Virus record (IMG/VR): IMGVR_UViG_3300025645_000111
Coordinates: 1-51,015 of that record
Origin: a virus
Strand: one strand, 5' to 3'
DNA length: 51,015 bases
Part shown: one piece after another, positions 261-45,456 of the stretch
How positions within the stretch are numbered: the stretch's first letter is position 1
How the letters are laid out: the number at the start of each line of letters is the position of its first letter
Made by a program: the position numbers and the translations under genes
Notes under the pieces: model-generated
Database searches by the model: none
What the model saw: the letters and a program-made list of their open reading frames with translations, nothing else
What the model was told of the DNA's origin: nothing

Positions 261-2307
261 AAGCAACGGTCTGCCCTGCGCCAAATCTTTGCGAACCGGC
301 AGCAGCTAAACGATCTGCAATGCTTTGATTAGCAGCCAGGTCGCCAGAAGCCTCCTGGGACATTCTGCCAGATAGTGATTGGTCTGCAGTAAGCCTGCTC
401 GCCGCACCCTGACTCAATGTATTTGCAGCACCCTGCTGGGCACTCAAGTCCTGACCGCCAAGAGATGCAAGCCCTTCTGCTGCGCCACGCTGAGCTCCCT
501 GCTGTCGAGCAAACTCACTCATCGCAGTGTTTTGAGCGTTCTGGAATCCCTGAGCTCTTAGACCGCCAACCTCTTTGGCCAATCCTCTACCCATTGCTTC
601 CGCTCGCTCTGCAGCAGTCAACCTAGCCCTAGAGCCAAAAGCAGACTCACCGCCAGTCTGTATATCTCTAGCGGTCTGAGCCATGTCGGACTGAGCCAAC
701 CCTTTAGTGGCGTCCTGGATCATTTGGTTGACTACACTATCTTCATACGGGTTCATATACTGAGAAGTAGTTGACGGATCAAATGCCCCTACAGAACCAC
801 GCAGTAAATCCCTGGACTCATTTAGCCCAGCAGAGAAATCATCAACCGCACCAATCCCACGCTGTTCTGCGTCAGACAGTCTGTTGCCGAAACGGTCAAC
901 AGCGGCACCAAGCCTTGCTGTAGCTTCACCTTGTCGGTTGGTAAATCGGTCAACAGCTCCACGCTCCTGGCCTAATGCCTGGTTGAGCTCTTGATTTAAT
1001 TTTGCTTCTGCACCCTGCAGAGATGTGGTGGCCTGACCCAAGCCTTGGCCAAGACGATCTACGGCACCTTCTTGCCTGGCTAAGGAGCCAGATAAGCCCT
1101 CGCCTAAACCTTCAATCCCCTGCCTAAGTGCTGCAGTTGACTGACCTAAACCAGAATCTAAAGTACGACCAGCCTGCTCTTGCCTGGACAAAGATTGTGT
1201 TAATCCAGCCCCTAAGCCTTGAACACCTTCTCTAAGCGCTGCAGTTGAAGAGTCCAGTCCTGATCCCAGGCCAGCGACAGCTCGACGCTGTTCTGCCAAA
1301 GATCCACCTAAACCTCCACCAAGCTCATTTACTGATCGAGATAAACCCTGAGTTGCTTGCCCTACTTGGCCAGAGAATTGTCCTTCTGCGCCTCTAGCTA
1401 AACCTTCTATTCCACCCAGGTCTCGCGCAAACCGATCACCAGATTGTCGAAGCATCGCACCCTGCTGCCCAAGTGCCTGACGTTGCTGACTTGCACCACC
1501 GGCCAGCTCCCTGGCAGCGCCAGCAAGTCCTCGATCAAAACCGGCTGTAGATCTTCTAGCCAAATCATCAATATTAGATAAGTCGCGTCCAAATCTATTG
1601 GCAGCTAACTGACCAGTCCGCTCAGATCCAGCAAGATCTCGCTTAAACCTGTTAAGGTCATTAGCTGCAAACCGATCCACATCACCCATTCGGTCGTCAA
1701 ATGCAGAGGCTGCACCCCTGGATAAATTCTCTACGCCCTGGGCACGTTGGTCGAATTGCTGCTGAGTTTGAAGCGCTTGTTGCTCTTGAGCAGACAAGTC
1801 TCTCCGTAATTCATTTGTTGCTCGCTGCGCTTCGCTCTGGTTTCTGCGAATGCCGCCTAATGCGTCACCCAAACCACGCTGGGCTTGAAACTCAGATATG
1901 CCTGCGCCACGCTGCAACTCTTGGAGTGACTGCTGCTGAGAAGCAAGCTGAGCCTGCTGCCCTTCACCCAGGGCACCAAGGCCCTGCTGATACGCATCTT
2001 GAGAAGCCTGGAGAAAAGGCTCTTGAGAACCAACGGCCTCTCTTGCCATTTCAAAGGCTGCTTGTTGGTCTGGGCTAAACCCAGCAATCTCCTGGGGAGT
2101 AACCAGGGGACGACCCTGCTCATCAAAGAAACTGCGCTCGGCAGCTTGCATCGCTCCAGGTATAAAACCGCCCTGGCCATCTAAGCCATAAAGCATTTGC
2201 TGGACAATAGGGTCCATGCTGGTTTCAGTCTTTTGAATACCAGCTACATAAGGAGAAGCGGCGCCACCTTCTTGAAACCTTTTAATTTGGGCGGGGGACA
2301 TAATCAT
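1..2307 (-). CDS. Giant Gln/Ala-rich repeat virion protein, N-terminal 769 codons (continues through the circular join)
   Basis: The start is an ATG at 2307 whose ATGA overlaps the stop of the LysM gene. The frame stays open to base 1 and continues in phase as the segment ending at 49836, giving about 1113 residues. The N-terminus (MIMSPAQIKRFQEGG) and the stretch around PLVTPQEIAGFSPDQQ are ordinary. After about residue 130 the chain is low-complexity coiled-coil sequence rich in Q, A, G, L and R, with degenerate units such as SLARQE.GLGQGL and, near the join, 36-residue units of the type ARRAGDISQTQFGADQALSSQ. No enzymatic motif is seen. Its place among late genes, next to other long non-enzymatic proteins, suggests an internal or ejected virion protein; that role is inference. 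Confidence 0.8.
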   Translation of the reverse strand, partial: MIMSPAQIKRFQEGGAASPYVAGIQKTETSMDPIVQQMLYGLDGQGGFIPGAMQAAERSFFDEQGRPLVTPQEIAGFSPDQQAAFEMAREAVGSQEPFLQASQDAYQQGLGALGEGQQAQLASQQQSLQELQRGAGISEFQAQRGLGDALGGIRRNQSEAQRATNELRRDLSAQEQQALQTQQQFDQRAQGVENLSRGAASAFDDRMGDVDRFAANDLNRFKRDLAGSERTGQLAANRFGRDLSNIDDLARRSTAGFDRGLAGAARELAGGASQQRQALGQQGAMLRQSGDRFARDLGGIEGLARGAEGQFSGQVGQATQGLSRSVNELGGGLGGSLAEQRRAVAGLGSGLDSSTAALREGVQGLGAGLTQSLSRQEQAGRTLDSGLGQSTAALRQGIEGLGEGLSGSLARQEGAVDRLGQGLGQATTSLQGAEAKLNQELNQALGQERGAVDRFTNRQGEATARLGAAVDRFGNRLSDAEQRGIGAVDDFSAGLNESRDLLRGSVGAFDPSTTSQYMNPYEDSVVNQMIQDATKGLAQSDMAQTARDIQTGGESAFGSRARLTAAERAEAMGRGLAKEVGGLRAQGFQNAQNTAMSEFARQQGAQRGAAEGLASLGGQDLSAQQGAANTLSQGAASRLTADQSLSGRMSQEASGDLAANQSIADRLAAAGSQRFGAGQTVASQLGSSASQLGAAESDLARRAGDISQTQFGADQALSSQLGNTAAQRAAFQADIARRTGDVSQTQFGADQTLASQMGQTAAQKAAAQS

Positions 2308-4304
2308 GCTGGCTCTCCTGCAAAGTCTCTGAACAGCTTCATCATGTCGTACATTAGCTTTGTGCCTTTCTCCCTGGACTCTTCACCCAGGGGTTGCAAT
2401 GTAATGATGCCGCCGTCTTTTTTCATCTCGAAAGCTCCAGCACCTCTTACTGCCTGGCCCGTCATGACGAACTCGCCATCGGATAGCATGGCAGGAATGT
2501 CATCACTTACCTCAGTGCCTGGTCCTTCGATATCGCCAACCATTCTTTGAAACTCTTCCATAGAGACGTTGCCGCCATCAGCATAAGACATGACAGGTCC
2601 GCCGTATCTCATTCCTTCCGCTTCAGTTGGTGGTGGGGTTGGTCTTCCACCGCTCAAGGTCGGGAAGGTATTAGCAGGCAGCAAGCCAAACTCAACAGGG
2701 TTAGGGGCTTCCCCTCCTGTACGTCTTGCAATCTCTGCTTCAATATTGTATCGGCCAGCCGCGTTCATAGAGGTCAACGGCGTCTGTGCTACACCTTTAG
2801 AGTTCTTGGCTTCATCATAAGCGAGCTTACCCAGCAAGCCGGCCAGGCCAAGCGCTGCAATGTCTTTGCCTCCAAAGCCACCGCCACCGCTACCACCGCC
2901 AGTGATAGACTTGATAAAGTCAGGTGTTGGATTGCTCCCACCAAATCCTAAGCTGTCGCCTATGTTCTTTATGTAGTCTGGGGTGTCAAACGCCTCATCA
3001 ATAAAGCTGCCATTGGTGAATGGGTTCAAACCAGACAGTACACTGGAGGCCGCTCCTGCAGCTGCACCAGTGCCGGCCATCATCTGGCCACCTGGTACGT
3101 TTAGCATTTGGCCAGCGATAATCATGTTGGGGTCAGTTATGTGCGGGTTATTTGCCATCATTTCTTCAACAGATACGCCGTACTGCTGGGCTATCTGAGA
3201 GAGCGTATCCCCAGATTGAATCTGATATTGCTCTGGCACTCCTGCCATTCCAGCACCGCCAAGACCCGCTGCAGTGGTAAGACCTCTTCCAACCATTCCG
3301 GTAGGAGCTCCAGGCAGCTGACCAGGATTGAGCACGCTACCTGTTGCAGCTACACCAGGCAGCGCTGCCTCTCCTGAGTAAGTTGCTGTTTTTAGCAATC
3401 CAGGAATACCCTTGTTACCTGCAGCACCACCGAAGATGGTGTCCATGGGGCTAGAGACAAGGTTACCAATACCGCTCTTTAACGCAGCACCAGTGCCGGT
3501 TAAACCGGCGCCTATCCCGCTGAAAAAGTTACCGCCACCAGCTTTAGTGATATTAGAGATGTTAGATCCAATACTTCCGCCAGTAGCAGCGGGGCCAGCT
3601 ACAGTCAGCAAAGCCAGGGGATTGGCTCTGCCTTTTGCAACATCGTATACAGTGAATGCTTTGTTAGCCAAAGCAGCGATAGGCTGCCATGGACCAGGTA
3701 TAAATTGAGCTACCTTGGCAAGAGGTTTGACAACCTTCTTAACAACCTTCTTAACGCTTTTTGCAATCTTCTTAAAGAAGCCGAATTCTTCCAGCCCAGT
3801 AATTGGGTTTAATGAGGCGATGCCCAAACCAACTACAGCCTGGTGTGGGTCAATATCTAATTCTTCAAATCTTTGCTGAACGACACGCTCAAACTCTGGA
3901 TCCTCAAATGCTTCAGGCGGAAGGACAACCTCACCTGGTCGGAGGTGAGCCAGGGCAGTATCATCGCCACGACCTTCTGCTGCCAGGGCAATAGCCTGCT
4001 CAGCCATGGGCGCGTTAGCCCCAACCATAGCGGCTTCAGCCAGGTGCTCATATGTTCTTTTTTCTGTGGGATCGTCTGTGGCCTGGGCTTGCATCATCAT
4101 CTCTTCGATGGCTGCAGCAATATCGGCATTCGGGTCTTGAGTTACGGCCTGCTCTACAACGGCCTCTTGAGCTTGGCCCATCAAGGCCATTTGATCCTGG
4201 GAAGGTGCTGCGCCGCCATCTCTCATCATGACAACTGGCCCTCCCATGTTCATTGGTTGGGCTTCAAGACTTGCAAGCAGTTGATCTTCTAATTTCATAT
4301 TCAT
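2304..4304 (-). CDS. LysM-domain virion protein (666 aa)
   Basis: A LysM peptidoglycan-binding module sits at about residues 359-404 (YQIQSGDTLSQIAQQYGVS, then IIAGQMLNVP). A strongly cationic amphipathic stretch lies at about 178-197 (FFKKIAKSVKKVVKKVVKPL). Two motifs that I recall from many phage structural proteins are present: LRPGEVVLPPEAF near 121 and, near the C-terminus, SDDIPAMLSDGEFVMTGQAV. The middle is Gly/Ala-rich. The start ATG overlaps the upstream stop by four bases. It most likely belongs to the tail or to the set of ejected proteins and helps attach to or cross the cell wall. The LysM call is firm; the exact virion location is inferred. Confidence 0.85.
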   Translation of the reverse strand: MNMKLEDQLLASLEAQPMNMGGPVVMMRDGGAAPSQDQMALMGQAQEAVVEQAVTQDPNADIAAAIEEMMMQAQATDDPTEKRTYEHLAEAAMVGANAPMAEQAIALAAEGRGDDTALAHLRPGEVVLPPEAFEDPEFERVVQQRFEELDIDPHQAVVGLGIASLNPITGLEEFGFFKKIAKSVKKVVKKVVKPLAKVAQFIPGPWQPIAALANKAFTVYDVAKGRANPLALLTVAGPAATGGSIGSNISNITKAGGGNFFSGIGAGLTGTGAALKSGIGNLVSSPMDTIFGGAAGNKGIPGLLKTATYSGEAALPGVAATGSVLNPGQLPGAPTGMVGRGLTTAAGLGGAGMAGVPEQYQIQSGDTLSQIAQQYGVSVEEMMANNPHITDPNMIIAGQMLNVPGGQMMAGTGAAAGAASSVLSGLNPFTNGSFIDEAFDTPDYIKNIGDSLGFGGSNPTPDFIKSITGGGSGGGGFGGKDIAALGLAGLLGKLAYDEAKNSKGVAQTPLTSMNAAGRYNIEAEIARRTGGEAPNPVEFGLLPANTFPTLSGGRPTPPPTEAEGMRYGGPVMSYADGGNVSMEEFQRMVGDIEGPGTEVSDDIPAMLSDGEFVMTGQAVRGAGAFEMKKDGGIITLQPLGEESREKGTKLMYDMMKLFRDFAGEPA

Positions 4305-29730: not shown

Positions 29731-30714
29731 CTAAGCAGCATCGCGCCCAGCGTCAATTTCTTGGTAACCTGGGGACTGTGAAACTGATATAGAAGCCCAC
29801 CCAGGACTTTGCCCATCGTTTATTGTATTGTAGTTTGGATCTTGATTGGTGTCTATCTCTCCATACACCAAAGGAGCGCCCAAGTCTACACTTACAGCCA
29901 AGCCCACTGGGAATGCGGATGCGCCTAACTTTAACGTAACATCGCCAACCGCTACGCCAATCTCAAAGCCAACGGGCTCTACAATTGTGTTGTTGTAAAC
30001 AATGACGCTGCCAATGGCAGATGTCATCGCCAGGGATCCCGCAGTCACATTGGCTTTCGCCTGGACAGAAGCAGATCCCACTGCAGAAGTTATTGCCAGG
30101 CTGCCGGCTGTCACATTTGCTTCGGCATCAACAGCTGCAGCGCCAACAGCAGAAGTAATCGCCAGGGTGCCAGCTGTCACATTTGCTTCAGCATCAACAG
30201 CTAGGGCGCCTACTGCAGAAGTTATTGCCAGGCTGCCGGCTGTCACATTTGCTTCAGCATCTACCGTTACGCTGCCAATGGCTGAGGACATAGACAGTCC
30301 AGTCACCTGGACAACTGCGCCGGCAACTACCTGGGCAGCGCCAATACCAGACGTAATCGCCAGGGATGGGGCTGTAACATTAGCAACCGCATTGACTGTT
30401 AAGCTGCCAACGCCTGAAGTAATAACGCCGGCTGAAGATACAGCAACATCTGCTGCAGCGGTAGCGGTAACGCTGCCAACTGCCGAAGATATAGATAACC
30501 CAGTAACCTGGACGACAGCGCCAGCTACAACTTGCGGGGCACCAACTGCCGAGGTTATTGCTGGGGAAACAGGGGTCACGTTGGCTTCTGCAACAATAGT
30601 TACACTGCCAACGGCTGAGGTGATTACACCAGCGGTCGATAAAGTTACAGGCAGCGAAGTACCCCAGGCGCCTTCGCCCCAGGTTCCGCGACCCCAGCCG
30701 GTTAATGTGGCCAT
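29731..30714 (-). CDS. Repeat-rich virion appendage protein (327 aa)
   Basis: N-terminus GWGRGTWGEGAWGTSLPV, then about eight near-identical 20-27 residue units (ANVTAGSLAITSAVGA) over residues 25-265, each probably a pair of beta strands. A non-repeated end contains YNTINDGQSPGWASISVSQS. It is separated from the large fibre gene by 16 bases. It may be a second fibre or a beta-solenoid spacer. No enzymatic motif is seen. Confidence 0.75.
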   Translation of the reverse strand: MATLTGWGRGTWGEGAWGTSLPVTLSTAGVITSAVGSVTIVAEANVTPVSPAITSAVGAPQVVAGAVVQVTGLSISSAVGSVTATAAADVAVSSAGVITSGVGSLTVNAVANVTAPSLAITSGIGAAQVVAGAVVQVTGLSMSSAIGSVTVDAEANVTAGSLAITSAVGALAVDAEANVTAGTLAITSAVGAAAVDAEANVTAGSLAITSAVGSASVQAKANVTAGSLAMTSAIGSVIVYNNTIVEPVGFEIGVAVGDVTLKLGASAFPVGLAVSVDLGAPLVYGEIDTNQDPNYNTINDGQSPGWASISVSQSPGYQEIDAGRDAA

Positions 30715-30888: not shown

Positions 30889-31680
30889 CTATGCAGCTTC
30901 GCCGATACCTTGGAATTTGCGGTCCAGGATACGGCGTACTTTAGAGTAAGTGATATCAGCAGCGCAAGCGTGGAGCGATGCGACCTGCTTAGCAATCTTC
31001 CTGGGGCCCAGCCCTCGGTCCCGCAGTTTGTAAATCGTCATCAACACATCCTGCTCTTCGGGGATCTCCTCCAGGCGAGTCCTGGTCTTATTGCCGTGCT
31101 TCTCCTGGACCTTAGCGTAGCCATAAGGAGCGCTGCCACCAATGAAGTATCCGCGAGAGGCCCAATCTACCTTGCCATCACCAAATCGGTCCTTGATGGT
31201 GGAGTGTTCTATCTCAGCAACCGCTGAAAGCACCATAAGCATGATCTGGTTAGCCATTTCGTTCATATCAAACTTAGATCTCAGGCCCTTCTGGCCTTCT
31301 GGCTTAGGATATACGATGGGCACCTCGCCAAACTGCTCACAAAAGAACAATGTAATGCCAATATCTTGCAATACGGGGATAATTGACAGCAAATCGGCGC
31401 TGGACCTGGATAATCGGTCCAATCGAGTGCAAACAATGACATCATGACGATCAATGATGTCGGTGAGCTCTTTACTGCCTGGTCGATCCAGGATTGGCCT
31501 GGTGCCGGACACGCCGTCATCTACCAGGAACTCTGTAACCTCTCGGTTATACTTCTCTTTAACAAAGTCAGCAATCTGCTGCTGCTGAACCTCTAAGGAC
31601 ACGCCAGATCGTACCTGCTCTTTAGTCGATACCCTGACATAGCCATAAATATTGTTGATTTGCTTGAGCGGATTAATCAT
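30889..31680 (-). CDS. Serine recombinase (263 aa)
   Basis: Resolvase/invertase-type catalytic domain: YGYVRVSTKEQ with nucleophile Ser18, DDGVSGT at 54-60, and TRLDRLSRS with Arg86, Arg89 and Arg92. A C-terminal DNA-binding part (GGSAPYGYAKVQEKHGNKTR, then RDRGLGPRKIAKQVASL) resembles the start of the large-recombinase domain, but lacks a zinc ribbon and long coiled coil. It could act as a phage integrase, a resolvase of circular dimers, or a fibre-region invertase. No inverted fibre cassette or attachment site was seen nearby. Confidence 0.85.
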   Translation of the reverse strand: MINPLKQINNIYGYVRVSTKEQVRSGVSLEVQQQQIADFVKEKYNREVTEFLVDDGVSGTRPILDRPGSKELTDIIDRHDVIVCTRLDRLSRSSADLLSIIPVLQDIGITLFFCEQFGEVPIVYPKPEGQKGLRSKFDMNEMANQIMLMVLSAVAEIEHSTIKDRFGDGKVDWASRGYFIGGSAPYGYAKVQEKHGNKTRTRLEEIPEEQDVLMTIYKLRDRGLGPRKIAKQVASLHACAADITYSKVRRILDRKFQGIGEAA

Positions 31681-32360: not shown

Positions 32361-32387
32361 TTCTCACTCCTTAATTACTACATTGCT

Positions 32388-32416
32388 AATGTATCCTATA
32401 TCGTGTCGTTGTGCAA
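32388..32416 (-). promoter_or_regulatory. Early promoter/operator A (leftward)
   Basis: On the minus strand: TTGCAC, 17-bp spacer beginning AACGACACGATA, then TACATT. It drives the operon starting at 32360. It forms a perfect 15-bp inverted repeat (CGTGTCGTTGTGCAA at 32402-32416) with promoter B. Confidence 0.7.
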
Positions 32417-32450
32417 GCATAAATATACTTTAATTTAATTTAATAAATAG

Positions 32451-32479
32451 TTGCACAACGACACGTTATTAGGTATATT
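32451..32479 (+). promoter_or_regulatory. Early promoter/operator B (rightward)
   Basis: TTGCAC, 17-bp spacer beginning AACGACACGTTA, then TATATT, 31 bases before the ATG at 32511 and before a good AAGGAG. It is the divergent partner of promoter A, with about 35 bases of A/T-rich DNA between the two -35 elements. Confidence 0.75.
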
Positions 32480-32510
32480 GTAAATGTAAGTTAATTATTA
32501 AGGAGAAGTT

Positions 32511-32822
32511 ATGACTGCGTTTGTTAAAGAAGATTTTGCCTGGGACGGTATGTACTTAATGTATCGAGGCCGTCACTCTGAGTCTGTCAATATGGAGGTT
32601 GCACACCCTAACTGTCACCCTTCATGGATCGGCAAGCCAAAGCCAGCGTTTATTGCTCGCTTCAAATACGGCAGCAAGCCCTGGAAGTCTTGGGTAAACT
32701 GCTTGATGGATAACTATACTGTCGAAGGTTATCTCCAGGCTTGCAAAGAAAGCAGCCCGTTAGAGGCCGTCCAGGCTAAAGGTTACAAGGGTCGCGGCAG
32801 GTATAAGAGGATGGCAGCGTGA
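32511..32822 (+). CDS. First rightward early protein (103 aa)
   Basis: An aromatic-rich small protein (EDFAWDGMYLMYRGRHSESV, HPSWIGKPKPAFIARFKYG, KPWKSWVNCLMDNY) with a basic GYKGRGRYKRMAA end. It follows promoter B and a clear AAGGAG. Its position as first early gene and its composition suit a host-takeover protein, but nothing identifies its target. Confidence 0.7.
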   Translation: MTAFVKEDFAWDGMYLMYRGRHSESVNMEVAHPNCHPSWIGKPKPAFIARFKYGSKPWKSWVNCLMDNYTVEGYLQACKESSPLEAVQAKGYKGRGRYKRMAA

Positions 32823-32902
32823 TAGATATTGCGTTGCTTTTTACAGCCACAATGATGGGAGGGCTCCTGGCTCTCCTATTTGCCGAGGATAAAAATGAGT
32901 AA
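32819..32902 (+). CDS. Membrane microprotein (27 aa)
   Basis: A GTG start makes a GTGA overlap with the preceding stop, and the next ATG lies inside its end. The product (IDIALLFTATMMGGLLALLF, then AEDKNE) is almost entirely one hydrophobic span. The chain of overlaps and the direction support a real, very small gene. Confidence 0.5.
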   Translation: MIDIALLFTATMMGGLLALLFAEDKNE

Positions 32903-33008
32903 AATCATTATTGAGTTAGACAAAGAGGACGCTGAAGAAGTCCTTAAAACCCACGCGGAAATCCTGGAGTTATTGCGGGAGATCCTCAAGGAGCTGCAAG
33001 ATGGATAA
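32895..33008 (+). CDS. Leucine-zipper-like microprotein (37 aa)
   Basis: MSKIIIELDKEDAEEVLKTH then EILELLREILKELQDG is a strongly predicted charged helix. It overlaps the upstream stop by eight bases and the downstream ATG by eight bases. Function unknown; it could dimerise. Confidence 0.55.
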   Translation: MSKIIIELDKEDAEEVLKTHAEILELLREILKELQDG

Positions 33009-33210
33009 GTATTTCGACACTCTGGACCAGGCTGAATTGTTCCACGTGGAACCTGGTATGACTGAGAAGCAGCGAATGAAAATCTACAAACGTGCCCTGA
33101 ACGTGCATCATAACGCGGGGCCTGAAGCCAAACACATCGTAAAAATCTGGAGAGAGCAGAAAGATGAGCAAAGGTCACACCCAACGCCCCACCAATATGA
33201 AGAGTTTTAG
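33001..33210 (+). CDS. Small early protein (69 aa)
   Basis: ATG at 33001 directly follows an AAGGAG. The product is basic and His-rich (EKQRMKIYKRALNVHHNAGP, EAKHIVKIWREQK). The end overlaps the next gene by 47 bases in another frame. Function unknown. Confidence 0.6.
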   Translation: MDKYFDTLDQAELFHVEPGMTEKQRMKIYKRALNVHHNAGPEAKHIVKIWREQKDEQRSHPTPHQYEEF

Positions 33211-33349
33211 CGACAATTTTGATCGCATCTTCAACAAACCAACCGATCCTCGATTCTGTGACGCGCATGATTTGCGCCTGGTTGAGGACCCTAAAACCAA
33301 ACAAATGGTTTGCCCACACTGTGAGCAAGCCAAAGGAGAAGCAATATGA
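33164..33349 (+). CDS. Small putative zinc-binding early protein (61 aa)
   Basis: The end FCDAHDLRLVEDPKTKQMVC then PHCEQ supplies C..H and CPHC, a possible zinc site. The start at 33164 follows a GAGAG stretch; an inner ATG at 33197 is an alternative that removes the overlap with the previous gene. It ends in an ATGA overlap with the next gene. Confidence 0.6.
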   Translation: MSKGHTQRPTNMKSFSDNFDRIFNKPTDPRFCDAHDLRLVEDPKTKQMVCPHCEQAKGEAI

Positions 33350-33540
33350 GTGCAGATAGATACGAGCTGGAAGAGTTCTTCCAGGCAGAGAGCGGCAGCG
33401 GGTACGTTGTTACCAGGCGCTGCGGTGAAGCAAGTTATGAGGAGATAATAGCCAGGCGTGCCAAGATCCTGGATAAGCAAAAGAAGCCTCACGGGATCTA
33501 TTACATTAGCCCCCAGGGCGAGCGCAGCCGAGTTAAGTAG
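33346..33540 (+). CDS. Small early protein (64 aa)
   Basis: RYELEEFFQAESGSGYVVTR then GIYYISPQGERSRVK. It is coupled by ATGA to the preceding gene and is the last gene of the first rightward early operon. No recognised family. Confidence 0.6.
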   Translation: MSADRYELEEFFQAESGSGYVVTRRCGEASYEEIIARRAKILDKQKKPHGIYYISPQGERSRVK

Positions 33541-33551
33541 GCTGCAATTAG

Positions 33552-33580
33552 TTGTACAACGACACGATAAGTGTTACAAT
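33552..33580 (+). promoter_or_regulatory. Early promoter/operator C (rightward)
   Basis: TTGTAC, 17-bp spacer AACGACACGATAAGTGT, then TACAAT, 27 bases before the GTG of the HD hydrolase gene. This is the best match of all copies to a sigma-70 promoter, and it is the only unpaired copy. Confidence 0.75.
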
Positions 33581-33607
33581 AAACTGTATTGAGAAGGGAG
33601 GTGTGTT

Positions 33608-34048
33608 GTGGTTGCTGGGTTTCAAAAGGCTTTAGAGGTTGCCGTTGCCGAGTATGAGGAGCTGTTCGATAAGAACGGCTTGCCTATCATATTCCACGCG
33701 ATGGCCGTAGCCAAACCCATGATGGAGAAGTATGGCGAGACGCATGCTATTGTTGGATTGTTGCATGACGCTTACGAGAACGTCTGGAATACTGAGCAAG
33801 ATTTCATCGAGTGCGGTGAGATCTTTGGTCCTGAAATAGAGGCTGCGGTTCGAGCGGTCACTAAGGCCCCTGGTGAGGATTACTTGGAAGAATACATCCC
33901 CAGGTGTTTTGCCAACCCGATTGCAAAAGCAGTTAAGGTGTGCGACCTCAAAAACAACTACAATGGTCTTGACAGTATACCCAAGCCTGCCGATAGAAAA
34001 AGATTGGCAGCCAAGTATGCAGCAGCATTGCTCATGGCAGGAGAATAA
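33608..34048 (+). CDS. HD-domain hydrolase, SpoT/MESH1-like (146 aa)
   Basis: The metal-binding HD pattern of (p)ppGpp hydrolases is visible: IFHAMAVAK (His30), then ETHAIVGLLHDAYENV (His53-Asp54, followed by acidic residues), FGPEIEAAVRAVTKAPG, and KVCDLKNNYN (Asp113). The length suits a stand-alone MESH1-type enzyme. A GTG start at 33608 follows GGAGG by six bases, downstream of promoter C. It faces, tail to tail, a gene with a RelA/SpoT-like synthetase domain, so it may remove that domain's product or lower host (p)ppGpp. Substrate is inferred from the family. Confidence 0.8.
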   Translation: MVAGFQKALEVAVAEYEELFDKNGLPIIFHAMAVAKPMMEKYGETHAIVGLLHDAYENVWNTEQDFIECGEIFGPEIEAAVRAVTKAPGEDYLEEYIPRCFANPIAKAVKVCDLKNNYNGLDSIPKPADRKRLAAKYAAALLMAGE

Positions 34049-34049
34049 T

Positions 34050-34283
34050 ATGGAAAAGATAGAGAGTTATTGGACCTGGGAAGAAGCGCCAGGCGTTTTA
34101 GTTGACTACGGTGACGATAATTTTGGTGGATTTCACCTAGCCCAGGGCTCTGACGAATGGGAAAAACAGACCGAGTGGGATGTCGTTCAGTGGTTTAAAG
34201 AGGGTAAAAAGCTATCTAAGCCCAGTTTTGAAATGAAATACGGAAAGATCGGGGACCAGCTTCCACAACTCCCCCTTTCATAA
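34050..34283 (+). CDS. Small acidic protein (77 aa) between hydrolase and RelA-like gene
   Basis: ATG at 34050 follows AGGAG by seven bases and lies two bases after the hydrolase stop. The acidic, Trp-rich product (YWTWEEAPGVLVDYGDDNFG, DEWEKQTEWDVVQWFKEGKK) suits a protein-binding or inhibitor role. Its last 68 bases overlap the convergent RelA-like gene on the other strand. Function unknown; its position makes it a candidate third partner. Confidence 0.65.
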   Translation: MEKIESYWTWEEAPGVLVDYGDDNFGGFHLAQGSDEWEKQTEWDVVQWFKEGKKLSKPSFEMKYGKIGDQLPQLPLS

Positions 34284-35484
34284 ACTTATCCACAAGCTGC
34301 TCCACAATAGCAGGATCCGCTGCATCAAAAGCAGCACCAAACAGGCGCCTCTGCTCAGCAAGCGCCTTATTGTATAGCTTCAGCTTAGTACCAGGTATCT
34401 CGTGGTTGTACCGGCCTTCTAGCTTCCTGGAGTAATCATACCAGCGGTGAGCTCCCTGCTCCCCCGCATCAAACATTTCAGGCGTCTTAATCTGGATCTC
34501 AGCAACAATCTTCTTGCCGGTAGCCGGATCATCAACCAGGACATTCATCTTCCGGTCAAAGTAACCAGATTCAGGTATGCGCTGCCAACCTCGGTCGATA
34601 GTCGTGTACATCTGGCCTATTTGACTCACAGCCTCTTCTGCCTGGTCTGCAGTATCTATGTAAATCGTTGTTCTTACGCCATCGGTGAAGTCTGCCGGCG
34701 CCAGGCCCTTTCTCTCAACCTTGGTGGCTATGCTTTTCGGCGTCTTGACCTCAACATCAAACTGGCTGCCATCTTTTAGGTTGATAAACTTATCAGCTTT
34801 CTTGCCACCAACTGACTTAGCCACTGAGTCAATGTTAGCCTGGAATGAAGGGTTCACTGTGTTAGCTCGCTGGACCATGGCTTCAACCGAATTAAGATCA
34901 CCTTGCTGCCGTTTAAGTGCAGCCTCAATCTCTCTCACTCGCTCAATACCCAGCTCCTGGAATACAGGGGTGGTTCTGATCGGACCATCTACCTTGGTGC
35001 CCTGCTCAATCGCTGCAACTAACCTGGCGGCATCAATGGCTTCAACACCATCACCTACCCTGGCAACATCCTGGGGCAGATTATCAATTCCACCGGTCAG
35101 CTTCATGGCTTTTCTAAGTGCGCCTGGTGCCTTCAACGCGGTCCCCAGCGTAGCTCCGAGCGGCGGAATCACGTAGGTCGCATCACCCAGGACGCCTAAC
35201 GCCTGCAGCGCAGGATCTAGGATGTTGCCCTGGCGAATGTTCTCCAGGATAGAAGGATTGTTTTCGGCATCAAATATATCGGTGAGACCTGTATCAGACG
35301 ATGGCATTCCAGGCATATTACCGGTAGCATCAACAGTCGCTGCCCCAGGAAGTAGTTGCGCTGCAAAATACGCAGCCTGCTCCTCAGTCAGAAAAGGATC
35401 ACTCTTCTCTTCGGGATCGCGCATCATATCACTGACGCTGCCCCCAAGGTTAAAAGCGAATATGTCGATATCGTCTCTATTCAC
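34216..35484 (-). CDS. Long protein with C-terminal RelA/SpoT-like synthetase domain (422 aa)
   Basis: Residues 1-200 look like an ejected-protein leader (FLTEEQAAYFAAQLLPGAAT, a Gly/Ala/Pro stretch VIPPLGATLGTALKAPGALR). Residues about 240-360 align by eye with the Rel nucleotidyltransferase: EVKTPKSIATKVERKG (Lys247, Ser251, Lys255; the usual Arg is Glu), DFTDGVRTTIYID (Asp268), SGYFDRKM (Gly307-Tyr308, like GYQSIH), and VAEIQIKTPEMFDAGE (Glu329) with GAHRWYDYS. Key metal and base-stacking residues are kept. It may make (p)ppGpp or modify another nucleotide or RNA. GTG start. It converges on the HD hydrolase. Confidence 0.8.
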   Translation of the reverse strand: MNRDDIDIFAFNLGGSVSDMMRDPEEKSDPFLTEEQAAYFAAQLLPGAATVDATGNMPGMPSSDTGLTDIFDAENNPSILENIRQGNILDPALQALGVLGDATYVIPPLGATLGTALKAPGALRKAMKLTGGIDNLPQDVARVGDGVEAIDAARLVAAIEQGTKVDGPIRTTPVFQELGIERVREIEAALKRQQGDLNSVEAMVQRANTVNPSFQANIDSVAKSVGGKKADKFINLKDGSQFDVEVKTPKSIATKVERKGLAPADFTDGVRTTIYIDTADQAEEAVSQIGQMYTTIDRGWQRIPESGYFDRKMNVLVDDPATGKKIVAEIQIKTPEMFDAGEQGAHRWYDYSRKLEGRYNHEIPGTKLKLYNKALAEQRRLFGAAFDAADPAIVEQLVDKFMKGGVVEAGPRSFRISFQNWA

Positions 35485-44010: not shown

Positions 44011-44039
44011 TTGCACAACGACACGATATGTGTGATTAT
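44011..44039 (+). promoter_or_regulatory. Early promoter/operator G (rightward)
   Basis: TTGCAC, spacer AACGACACGATATGTGT (17), then GATTAT, 38 bases before the gene at 44078. Just upstream, TTGTGCAA (43999-44006) and TTGCACAA (44011-44018) form an 8-bp inverted repeat with a four-base gap, overlapping the -35 box. Confidence 0.7.
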
Positions 44040-44077: not shown

Positions 44078-44659
44078 ATGAGAGCACGAATGACTAGAGA
44101 GTTTTACATCCCAGCAGACTCTGTTGAGGTTAAGCCAGAAGGCATTGACGCCGTTGCCTACTACTACGACAGCGGTGCCAACAAGCCAGCTGCCATGATC
44201 TTCATCGGCAAGCAGCAGAAGCCAGCCAAGCACTACTGCTTCAAGAGCGTCGAGCGAAGAGATGAGTATGTCCAGGAGATCTTCGAGAACGTCAAGGCCA
44301 ACGCTGAGTACAAGAAGGAGCGAGCCGCCAAGGCCAAGGCTGCCAAGACTGAGGCTGCCAACACTATCAAGGTGGGTGACATCTTCGATACTAGCTGGGG
44401 CTATGACCAGACCAATGTTGAGTTCTTCAAGGTTGTCGCCAAGAAGGGCCAGATGATCGAGGTGGTTGAGATTGGCCAGGTAACTATGGAGAGCAACCAG
44501 AACATGGATTACGTTGCCCCCAATCCTGACCACATTATCGGCAAGATCATGACCAAGAGAATCAATCAGTACGGTGGATTCAAGGCTCACGACTGCGCCA
44601 ACGCCAGCCCTTACGGTGGTCAACCTCGATATCAAACTGCCTGGGGTTACGGGCACTAA
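44078..44659 (+). CDS. Early protein with Lys/Ala helix (193 aa), function unknown
   Basis: Start DSVEVKPEGIDAVAYYYD and MIFIGKQQKPAKHYCFKSVE (a small alpha/beta domain), then a Lys/Ala/Glu helix at about 80-105, then VGDIFDTSWGYDQTNVEFFK and EVVEIGQVTMESNQNMDYV with an aromatic/Gly end. The second half reads like a small beta-barrel. It has its own promoter and AAGGAG, and a hairpin closes the unit, so it is probably abundantly and separately expressed. Confidence 0.7.
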   Translation: MRARMTREFYIPADSVEVKPEGIDAVAYYYDSGANKPAAMIFIGKQQKPAKHYCFKSVERRDEYVQEIFENVKANAEYKKERAAKAKAAKTEAANTIKVGDIFDTSWGYDQTNVEFFKVVAKKGQMIEVVEIGQVTMESNQNMDYVAPNPDHIIGKIMTKRINQYGGFKAHDCANASPYGGQPRYQTAWGYGH

Positions 44660-44665
44660 TCAACC

Positions 44666-44681
44666 AGCCCCTTCGGGGGCT
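44666..44681 (+). terminator. UUCG-loop hairpin between convergent genes
   Basis: AGCCCC, loop TTCG, GGGGCT: a perfect 6-bp stem with a stable tetraloop in the 20 bases separating the convergent stops at 44659 and 44680. No long T-run follows, so termination in either direction may rely on the hairpin alone. Confidence 0.6.
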
Positions 44682-45405
44682 ATTCGATCTCTTCGTAAAT
44701 GTGTTTATTCCTAGACTTATTATGTAACCAGAATACCAGGAGGTATCTGTCGCCACTCTCCACTGCCAAGCCCCTGTGGAGATTGGTGAAGGATGGGAAT
44801 ATAAGGGCATGGCCAGAGGGCAAGGGCTTGAGCGTTCCATGATTATGGAATTCAGTACCGCCACCGACATACCCTCCAGTGTTCAGCGGAACAACCACCG
44901 AGATATCTGCAGACTCATCATGGTGCCAGGCACCTTTCTGCTTATCCTTGGGGTTGTAGTTTGCTATCTGCACCGAGGAGATATCAAAGCAATCTCTCTG
45001 ATACAGGCTTAGGAATATAGGGTTGAGGACAGTCTGCACCACGAACCACATACGGCTATACAGCTCAGGACAGTGGTCCCGCAGCACAATCTCTGGGATT
45101 TGCCTGAGCTCATCCTCATCCTCATTCGGTTTAAATGCAACGTGATCTTCCATGAGTTTGATCTCTTCGACCATCATCTTGCACCATTGCCGCCTAAACA
45201 AAGGCACGGTGTAAATGTCAGGAAAGACCCGCTTGCACATCTTATCTATGGGGGTTTTATGAAGATCCTCACGCCCCTCATTAGCTCTGTATTTGGCTAT
45301 GGCGGGGATAGATTCCTGGACGGCATCATACAGGGCATGATTGATAGGCCAGTTCGACTGCATTGAAAGAAGATAATTCTTTATTTGGTAAGTCATAGTT
45401 TGCAT
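44680..45405 (-). CDS. 2OG-Fe(II) oxygenase, prolyl-hydroxylase-like (241 aa)
   Basis: The double-stranded beta-helix motifs are complete: WHHDESADISVVVPLN with His161-x-Asp163, GGGTEFHNHG, and FTNLHRGLAVESGDRYLLVF with His210 and Arg220 (2OG binding). Such enzymes hydroxylate protein or nucleic-acid side chains using 2-oxoglutarate, Fe(II) and oxygen. The N-terminal ~150 residues are helical and may set the substrate. ATG 45405 is chosen over the TTG at 45417. It stands alone, divergent from a small regulator-like gene. Confidence 0.85.
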   Translation of the reverse strand: MQTMTYQIKNYLLSMQSNWPINHALYDAVQESIPAIAKYRANEGREDLHKTPIDKMCKRVFPDIYTVPLFRRQWCKMMVEEIKLMEDHVAFKPNEDEDELRQIPEIVLRDHCPELYSRMWFVVQTVLNPIFLSLYQRDCFDISSVQIANYNPKDKQKGAWHHDESADISVVVPLNTGGYVGGGTEFHNHGTLKPLPSGHALIFPSFTNLHRGLAVESGDRYLLVFWLHNKSRNKHIYEEIE

Positions 45406-45456
45406 ATTCTTACACAAAACTATAAACTGGTCCAGACAAATTTGATAGGACTAACA

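What the first reader, a model, noticed from the sequence alone, without database searches (positions are those of the whole stretch)
33608..35484. A phage RelA/SpoT-fold protein facing a SpoT/MESH1-like HD hydrolase: candidate alarmone or toxin/antidote module
Seen: a 422-residue protein carries the landmarks of a Rel synthetase (Lys247/Ser251/Lys255, Asp268, Gly-Tyr308, Glu329 in AEIQIKT) behind a leader that resembles ejected virion proteins. Directly opposite and converging lie a hydrolase with HD residues (His30, His53-Asp54, Asp113) under an early promoter, and a small acidic protein whose end overlaps the synthetase gene by 68 bases. Known: RelA/SpoT-fold enzymes make (p)ppGpp, (p)ppApp or pyrophosphorylate tRNA, and small-alarmone-synthetase toxins are paired with HD hydrolase antidotes. 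Inference: the phage injects or makes the synthetase to stop host metabolism or rivals, and expresses the hydrolase early to protect itself or to clear host ppGpp. A virion-associated synthetase with its own antidote would be new to me.
Basis: partly seen in the sequence, partly recalled or inferred. Interest (0 to 1): 0.85.

Follow-up and report, generated by a model that had tools for sequence, protein, structure and literature searches.

The report
Swappable phage alarmone-toxin cassette with antidotes
This phage carries an exchangeable gene cassette that probably makes a RelA/SpoT-type nucleotide poison fused to a phage "effector leader", facing two genes that look like its antidotes (a small blocking protein and an alarmone-degrading enzyme); related phages have the whole cassette or a different toxin in its place.

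Summary
ORF 34216-35484(-) carries a RelA_SpoT domain above Pfam's cut-off, and its model matches Rel/SAS synthetases. ORF 33608-34048(+) is an HD hydrolase whose best solved relative is a (p)ppApp hydrolase. A 77-aa acidic ORF lies between them and overlaps the toxin gene by 68 bases.

Comparing ~30 related IMG/VR contigs turned an adjacency into a system. The first ~150 residues are a mobile leader shared with proteins ending in Zeta-toxin, ART-like or unknown domains. Wherever the RelA domain is present and its 3' side is held, the acidic ORF converges on it (24/24); wherever the leader carries something else, acidic ORF and HD are both absent (0/8). The exchanged block, window ~33543-35022, runs from the HD gene's promoter element to the leader/toxin joint. 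In two lineages a divergent HD hydrolase lies elsewhere behind the same promoter element; in three contigs HD is missing and the acidic ORF stays.

Best reading: a polymorphic-toxin cassette with a steric antidote (acidic ORF) and an enzymatic one (HD). The logic is known from MuF-Apk2/IapK/Aph1 and FaRel; leader, convergent layout and block exchange differ. Virion packaging and substrate are not shown. An invariant Arg-to-Glu change is a caveat.

The parts
34216..35484 (-). 422-aa effector gene: N-terminal leader (about residues 1-150) plus C-terminal RelA/SpoT synthetase-fold domain (about residues 155-422)
   Evidence: modular in relatives
35035..35484 (-). mobile leader shared with proteins carrying other C-terminal domains (Zeta toxin, ART-like, unknown)
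   Evidence: alignment A1; relatives
34429..34749 (-). core PF04607 RelA_SpoT match (K247, S251, K255, D268, Y308, E329; Glu245 just before it in place of the RxK arginine)
34050..34283 (+). 77-aa acidic ORF converging on the toxin gene; candidate steric immunity protein; constant partner of the RelA domain
34216..34283 (.). 68-base antisense overlap of the 3' ends of toxin and acidic ORF (8-68 bases in relatives)
33608..34048 (+). 146-aa HD hydrolase, small-alarmone-hydrolase type, nearest to (p)ppApp hydrolases; candidate enzymatic antidote
33552..33580 (+). promoter/operator element TTGTAC-aacgacacgataagtgt-TACAAT in front of the HD-acidic operon
33543..35022 (.). exchange unit: promoter element + HD + acidic ORF + RelA domain; replaced as a block in L011, L012 and L019
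   Evidence: blastn boundaries
32402..32416 (-). another copy of the TTGYACAACGACACG element (divergent promoter of the minus-strand operon)
32451..32465 (+). another copy of the element, in front of the plus-strand genes 32511-33540
44011..44025 (+). another copy of the element, in front of gene 44078-44659(+)

Best explanation
The block 33543-35022 is an exchangeable polymorphic-toxin cassette of a tailed phage. Shown: (1) the C-terminal domain of the 422-aa protein belongs to the RelA/SpoT nucleotidyltransferase superfamily and sits on a leader that in other phages carries other toxin-like domains; (2) the acidic ORF accompanies the RelA domain in every locus where its 3' side is held, and it is absent when the domain is absent; (3) the HD hydrolase travels in the same block behind its own copy of a phage promoter element, and in two distant lineages a divergent alarmone-type HD hydrolase lies behind the same element. 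Inferred: the RelA domain is a poison that transfers pyrophosphate from ATP to a 3'-OH, on ADP/ATP or GDP/GTP (alarmone synthesis and ATP drain) or on tRNA 3' ends. The acidic protein binds it and blocks the active site. The HD enzyme removes the pyrophosphate again. Effector and antidotes are made from opposite strands under different control, so that an infected (or lysogenic) cell is protected while the effector is delivered to, or released against, the next host or a rival. Delivery inside the virion is plausible but not shown.
For: RelA_SpoT above cut-off. Foldseek: 18 PDB matches at E<=0.001, all Rel/SAS synthetases; viral best matches are polyvalent phage proteins and 'Tas1'. Profile A8 against PDB: GTP pyrophosphokinases 3l9d and 2be3 at 2-4e-5. 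Same leader with Zeta toxin (76 and 70 bits) or ART-like and other domains instead. Acidic ORF 24/24 with RelA versus 0/8 leader proteins without it. Sharp block boundaries at 33542/35023 in L011 and L012 and 33534/35099 in L019, with flanking genes kept at 82-96% aa identity. Lateral transfer: in L009 window 34069-34960 is 91% identical in DNA while the leader is 40% and the terminase small subunit 69% identical in protein. HD nearest to (p)ppApp hydrolase 7smg and to HD proteins directly downstream of MuF toxins in Mannheimia, Pasteurella and Streptococcus phages. Promoter element before HD in the window, L033 and L070. Purifying selection on all three genes. Literature: MuF-Apk2 is neutralised by a hydrolase (Aph1) plus a steric protein (IapK/BcTis1) (PMC12226406, PMC11699363); FaRel likewise (PMC11782079).
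Against: No biochemistry. Glu245 replaces the RxK arginine in every family member; FaRel2 R64/R95 contact the donor adenine (PMC11782079), and that Glu245 sits at the R64 position is inferred, so activity or donor may differ. The acidic ORF has no detectable homology to IapK (hhalign probability 0.4%), its model is poor (pLDDT 52), and no complex could be modelled. HD is absent near the cassette in L058, L059 and L067-L069, so it is not essential. Zeta and ART-like versions have no visible antidote gene, which weakens a general 'polymorphic toxin needs immunity' argument. Contigs are related, so 24 and 8 are not independent events. The RelA-domain model is only moderate (pLDDT 57).
Confidence: 0.72

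Rival explanations
1. Two separate phage functions that happen to be neighbours: a RelA-like virion effector, and an HD hydrolase that clears host (p)ppGpp or (p)ppApp to keep host metabolism running or to escape alarmone-type defences.
For: HD alarmone hydrolases without a synthetase are reported in other phages and read this way (PMC7824862, PMC12846349). An Aeromonas T4-like phage carries a relative with no synthetase named among its neighbours. In L033 and L070 the hydrolase is 2-4.5 kb away from the effector.
Against: In the window's clade HD lies in one operon with the acidic ORF and leaves together with the RelA domain in L011, L012 and L019. None of the 8 leader loci without RelA has it in the sequence held.
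Confidence: 0.15
2. A host-directed alarmone switch, not a toxin: the effector raises (p)ppGpp or (p)ppApp to redirect host transcription and metabolism for the phage, and HD plus the acidic protein tune it back down later.
For: Iyer et al. [quoted passage not shown] A separately promoted hydrolase fits timed control.
Against: The same leader carries Zeta-toxin and ART-like domains in sister phages, which are typical weapons; a constant overlapping partner gene is typical of toxin immunity.
Confidence: 0.2
3. The RelA-fold domain is catalytically dead or changed (Glu245) and acts as a binding or structural module of a virion protein; the acidic ORF is its chaperone.
For: Invariant Arg-to-Glu change in the RxK motif. 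In L076 the gene directly follows the portal gene, a virion position.
Against: K247, S251, K255, D268, Y308 and E329 are kept (L076/L077 have Phe at the Tyr308 position). An alarmone-type hydrolase accompanies the domain. Exchange for Zeta toxin argues for an effector role.
Confidence: 0.1

Closest known systems
MuF-Apk2 / IapK / Aph1 toxin-immunity loci of prophages (PMC12226406)
   Same: RelA/SpoT-type toxin domain at the C-terminus of a phage protein, a small (69-72 aa) non-enzymatic immunity protein and an HD (p)ppApp hydrolase next to it; the HD proteins are related
   Different: No MuF domain found; different leader; toxin domain only marginally alignable; acidic ORF not homologous to IapK; immunity genes convergent under their own promoter element instead of downstream in the same operon
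Phage polyvalent proteins with RelA/SpoT domains (Iyer et al. 2017, PMC5512222)
   Same: Phage multidomain effectors mixing RelA/SpoT, ART and other domains; related contigs show the same mixing
   Different: A word search of that paper for hydrolase or HD domain found nothing; partner antidote genes and exchange with them as one block are the new part here
FaRel TA module: toxSAS with SAH antitoxin ATfaRel and type II-like antitoxin AT2faRel (PMC11782079)
   Same: Same three-part logic: synthetase toxin, enzymatic hydrolase antidote, specific protein antitoxin
   Different: FaRel is a free-standing toxin whose gene shares one operon with its two antitoxin genes; here the toxin is fused to a leader in a phage and the antidotes are on the opposite strand
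Bxa / BAH / Bsi prophage MuF toxin (PMC11699363)
   Same: Phage effector with both an enzymatic (hydrolase) and a steric immunity protein
   Different: ADP-ribosyltransferase toxin and ARH hydrolase, MuF leader

Membership tests
RelA/SpoT synthetase (RSH/SAS) domain | PF04607 match above Pfam's gathering score | tested here: met
   27.5 vs 27 bits, E 3.9e-6; some relatives fall just below (25.7, 26)
RelA/SpoT synthetase (RSH/SAS) domain | Synthetase nucleotidyltransferase fold | tested here: met
   AF2 model of moderate quality (pLDDT 57); Foldseek PDB matches at E<=0.001 are all Rel/SAS synthetases
RelA/SpoT synthetase (RSH/SAS) domain | Catalytic K-S-K, D, G-Y and E residues | tested here: met
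   K247, S251, K255, D268, G307-Y308, E329; Tyr is Phe in the distant L076/L077
RelA/SpoT synthetase (RSH/SAS) domain | Arginine of the RxK motif | tested here: not met
   Glu245 in the window and in all 12 rows of A8; SAS proteins have R
RelA/SpoT synthetase (RSH/SAS) domain | Pyrophosphokinase activity | not testable with these tools
   needs enzyme assay
Apk2 MuF polymorphic toxins | N-terminal MuF domain | tested here: not met
   no MuF match at E<=0.1
Apk2 MuF polymorphic toxins | Apk2-type toxin domain | tested here: inconclusive
   hhalign in register over Syn motifs, E 0.0018 but probability 15%
Apk2 MuF polymorphic toxins | IapK homologue next to the toxin | tested here: not met
   hhalign probability 0.4%; similar size and neighbourhood only
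Apk2 MuF polymorphic toxins | Aph1-like HD hydrolase next to the toxin | tested here: met
   42.5% and 40% identity to the HD proteins of Mannheimia and Pasteurella MuF loci
(p)ppApp hydrolases (Aph1/PaSAH) | HD metal-site residues and closest solved relative | tested here: met
   H30, H53-D54, D113; best PDB hit 7smg (p)ppApp hydrolase E 4e-9, next 1e-5
(p)ppApp hydrolases (Aph1/PaSAH) | PF13328 HD_4 above cut-off | tested here: not met
   21.5 vs 27.2 bits; the divergent HD of L033 does pass (39.7 bits)
(p)ppApp hydrolases (Aph1/PaSAH) | Specificity for (p)ppApp over (p)ppGpp | not testable with these tools
   needs assay; the paper defining the determinants (PMC10083569) is not held
Phage polyvalent proteins | Several effector domains mixed on related polypeptides of one phage group | tested here: met
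   leader with RelA, Zeta, ART-like or unknown domains; the window protein itself has leader + RelA only
Phage polyvalent proteins | Recognised polyvalent domains (e.g. ART-PolyVal) above cut-off | tested here: inconclusive
   PF18760 at 27.4 and 21.2 bits vs 31.2 in L033 and L019
Phage polyvalent proteins | Packaged and delivered with the DNA | not testable with these tools
   only positional hints: L022 leader protein after TerL, L076 after portal
Type II toxin-antitoxin toxSAS module | Co-directional toxin-antitoxin operon | tested here: not met
   convergent genes with 8-68 base overlap

The most novel reading that the evidence does not exclude
A virion-delivered RelA-type effector with a time-separated, two-part antidote: the poison is packaged and injected, the antidotes are made early from a phage promoter, and the convergent, antisense-overlapping layout makes poison and antidote genes move between phages as one block that slots behind a common delivery leader.
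Probability: 0.35. Interest if true: 0.8.

Novelty: new variant of a known kind. Interest (0 to 1): 0.62.

Why it matters
It extends the 'phage toxin + hydrolase + steric immunity' logic from MuF prophage toxins to a different leader in environmental tailed phages (terminase related to pelagiphage terminases), with a different, convergent architecture. Natural swaps of the C-terminal domain with the loss of both candidate antidotes make the toxin-immunity assignment directly testable, and the promoter element in front of the hydrolase makes the question of when a phage needs protection from its own effector testable too.

Tried and rejected
DNA search of the 31-41.5 kb region and tblastn of the 422-aa protein in 50,697 phage records: no match. 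Two genome-contig scans with RelA-domain alignments: no relative, so no host or prophage was found. First PDB profile search of the RelA domain gave only weak cholera-toxin B-type hits from a short stretch; treated as chance and replaced by the broader profile A8. Acidic ORF: no Pfam family, no useful PDB hit, poor model; homology to IapK tested and rejected. A leader alignment was too diverse to scan. Invertible-segment idea for the serine recombinase: the only long inverted repeat at 29.5-32.6 kb is the divergent promoter pair 32379-32488. Clearing of host ppGpp as the main role of HD: lowered because HD leaves with the RelA domain.

Full report
Observation. The 422-aa protein reaches the RelA_SpoT gathering score (27.5 vs 27 bits). 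Its C-terminal domain was modelled at moderate confidence (pLDDT 57, best blocks 70-83); all 18 Foldseek PDB matches at E<=0.001 are Rel/SpoT or small alarmone synthetases, and the best viral matches are polyvalent phage proteins and a protein named Tas1. A family profile finds solved GTP pyrophosphokinases at 2-4e-5. The 146-aa HD protein is below the Pfam HD_4 cut-off but matches PHROG 990 at 4e-23, and its best solved relative is the (p)ppApp hydrolase 7smg (4e-9; next best 1e-5). Its best phage relatives include HD proteins that stand one small ORF downstream of MuF head-morphogenesis proteins in Mannheimia, Pasteurella and Streptococcus phages, i.e. the described Apk2-IapK-Aph1 arrangement (PMC12226406).

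Modularity. Residues 1-150 are a leader that occurs with different C-terminal parts. In L007 and L008 a GNAT-like or ART-like stretch is inserted between leader and RelA domain. In L011 and L012 the leader ends in a Zeta_toxin domain (76 bits), in L021 it is part of a 1304-aa protein with three leader copies, an ART-like stretch and a Zeta_toxin domain (70 bits), in L019 of a 1168-aa protein with two leader copies and ART-like domains, and in L079 it is again followed by a Zeta-type domain. ART-like and GNAT-like assignments are partly by eye or below the Pfam cut-off. This is the picture of phage polyvalent or polymorphic effectors (PMC5512222, PMC5576092), for which RelA/SpoT domains are already on record.

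Linkage of the candidate antidotes. Over 32 sequences (window included) the acidic ORF accompanies the RelA domain, converging on it, in 24 of 24 cases with the 3' side held (in L009 and L032 the acidic ORF runs off the contig end; in L055 only the end of the RelA domain is held), and is found in 0 of 8 leader proteins that carry something else. Where measured, the two genes overlap by 8-68 bases. The sequences are related, so this is not 32 independent events, but clean exchanges are visible. L011 and L012 are homologous to the window up to position 35023 and again from 33542, L019 up to 35099 and from 33534, with flanking genes at 82-96% protein identity. The missing block therefore starts just in front of the promoter element of HD and ends at the leader/toxin joint: promoter element, HD, acidic ORF and RelA domain are exchanged together. 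In the other direction L009 has 91% DNA identity over window 34069-34960 while its leader is 40% and its terminase small subunit 69% identical in protein, i.e. toxin domain and acidic ORF moved laterally. In the distant L076 (RelA domain about 34%, acidic ORF 27-35% identity) the pair is kept and the toxin gene lies one small ORF after the portal-like gene.

The hydrolase. HD is adjacent to the acidic ORF in the window's clade and in L030, L031 and L055. In L067-L069 it is absent where it would be expected, the homologue of 33346-33540 lying directly beside the acidic ORF, and it is absent within the held flank of L058 and L059. In L033 and L070 a divergent hydrolase (HD_4 39.7 bits in L033; 7smg at 1e-22) sits 2-4.5 kb away, directly behind a copy of the same promoter element. 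So the acidic ORF is the constant partner and the hydrolase a frequent second one, as expected if one blocks the enzyme and the other removes its product. All three genes are under purifying selection (dN/dS about 0.06-0.28 where synonymous change is not saturated).

Regulation. TTGYACAACGACACG occurs exactly four times in the window, each followed, 17 bases after the TTGYAC hexamer, by a -10-like hexamer (TACATT, TATATT, TACAAT, GATTAT): divergently at 32402-32465, before HD at 33552, and before the gene at 44078. The copy before HD is missing in L011, L012 and L019. No exact copy precedes the toxin gene. Early timing is an inference.

Mechanism and limits. Most likely a polymorphic-toxin cassette: RelA-type pyrophosphokinase poison, steric antidote (acidic ORF), enzymatic antidote (HD). 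This is what MuF-Apk2 (IapK, Aph1), FaRel (AT2faRel, ATfaRel) and, with other chemistry, Bxa do (PMC12226406, PMC11782079, PMC11699363). It is not shown to be an Apk2 family member: no MuF domain, only marginal toxin-domain similarity, no IapK homology, convergent genes. Open: substrate; virion packaging (only positional hints: L022 leader protein after the large terminase, L076 near the portal); host, as no genome contig was found, although the window's large terminase is closest to phage 023Pt_psg01 (60%), Pelagibacter phages HTVC027P and HTVC023P (57-58%) and DSL-LC04 (61% over a shorter stretch). A caveat for activity: the RxK arginine is Glu245 throughout the family.

Noticed in passing
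window 30889-31680(-): Small serine recombinase (Resolvase 89.5 bits; PHROG integrase/invertase) beside a repeat protein and the tail fibre gene, conserved with them in the relatives; could be a tail-fibre invertase or the integration enzyme. No flanking inverted repeats were found.
   Followed up: partly
window 32379-32488: 55-nt imperfect inverted repeat formed by two divergent copies of the TTGYACAACGACACG promoter element; looks like the control region of a repressor- or activator-driven switch.
   Followed up: partly
window 29731-30714(-): 327-aa protein made of ~22-residue tandem repeats (ANVTAGSLAITSAVG...), with aligned stretches differing between relatives, upstream of the tail fibre gene.
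   Followed up: no
window 44680-45417(-): 2OG-Fe(II) oxygenase-type protein (PHROG 61, E 2.5e-27), a possible auxiliary host-takeover gene.
   Followed up: no
window 2304-4304(-): LysM/tape-measure-like virion protein with MNMGGPVVMMRDGG near its start, resembling the NLGGSVSDMMRDP start of the effector leader; possible shared virion signal, weak.
   Followed up: partly
L021:2923-6837 and L019:3343-6849: Leader repeated three and two times inside one polypeptide between effector domains, suggesting it works as an inter-domain unit (processing or translocation) rather than a plain N-terminal signal.
   Followed up: partly
window 34732-34752 (residues 245-251) and alignment A8: Invariant Glu in place of the RxK arginine of the synthetase in the whole phage family; unexplained.
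   Followed up: partly
L078 (phage DSL-LC04) 19430-21907: A protein annotated 'PcfJ-like' lies between terminase large subunit and portal in a related phage, a position where another large effector-type protein could be made with virion genes.
   Followed up: no
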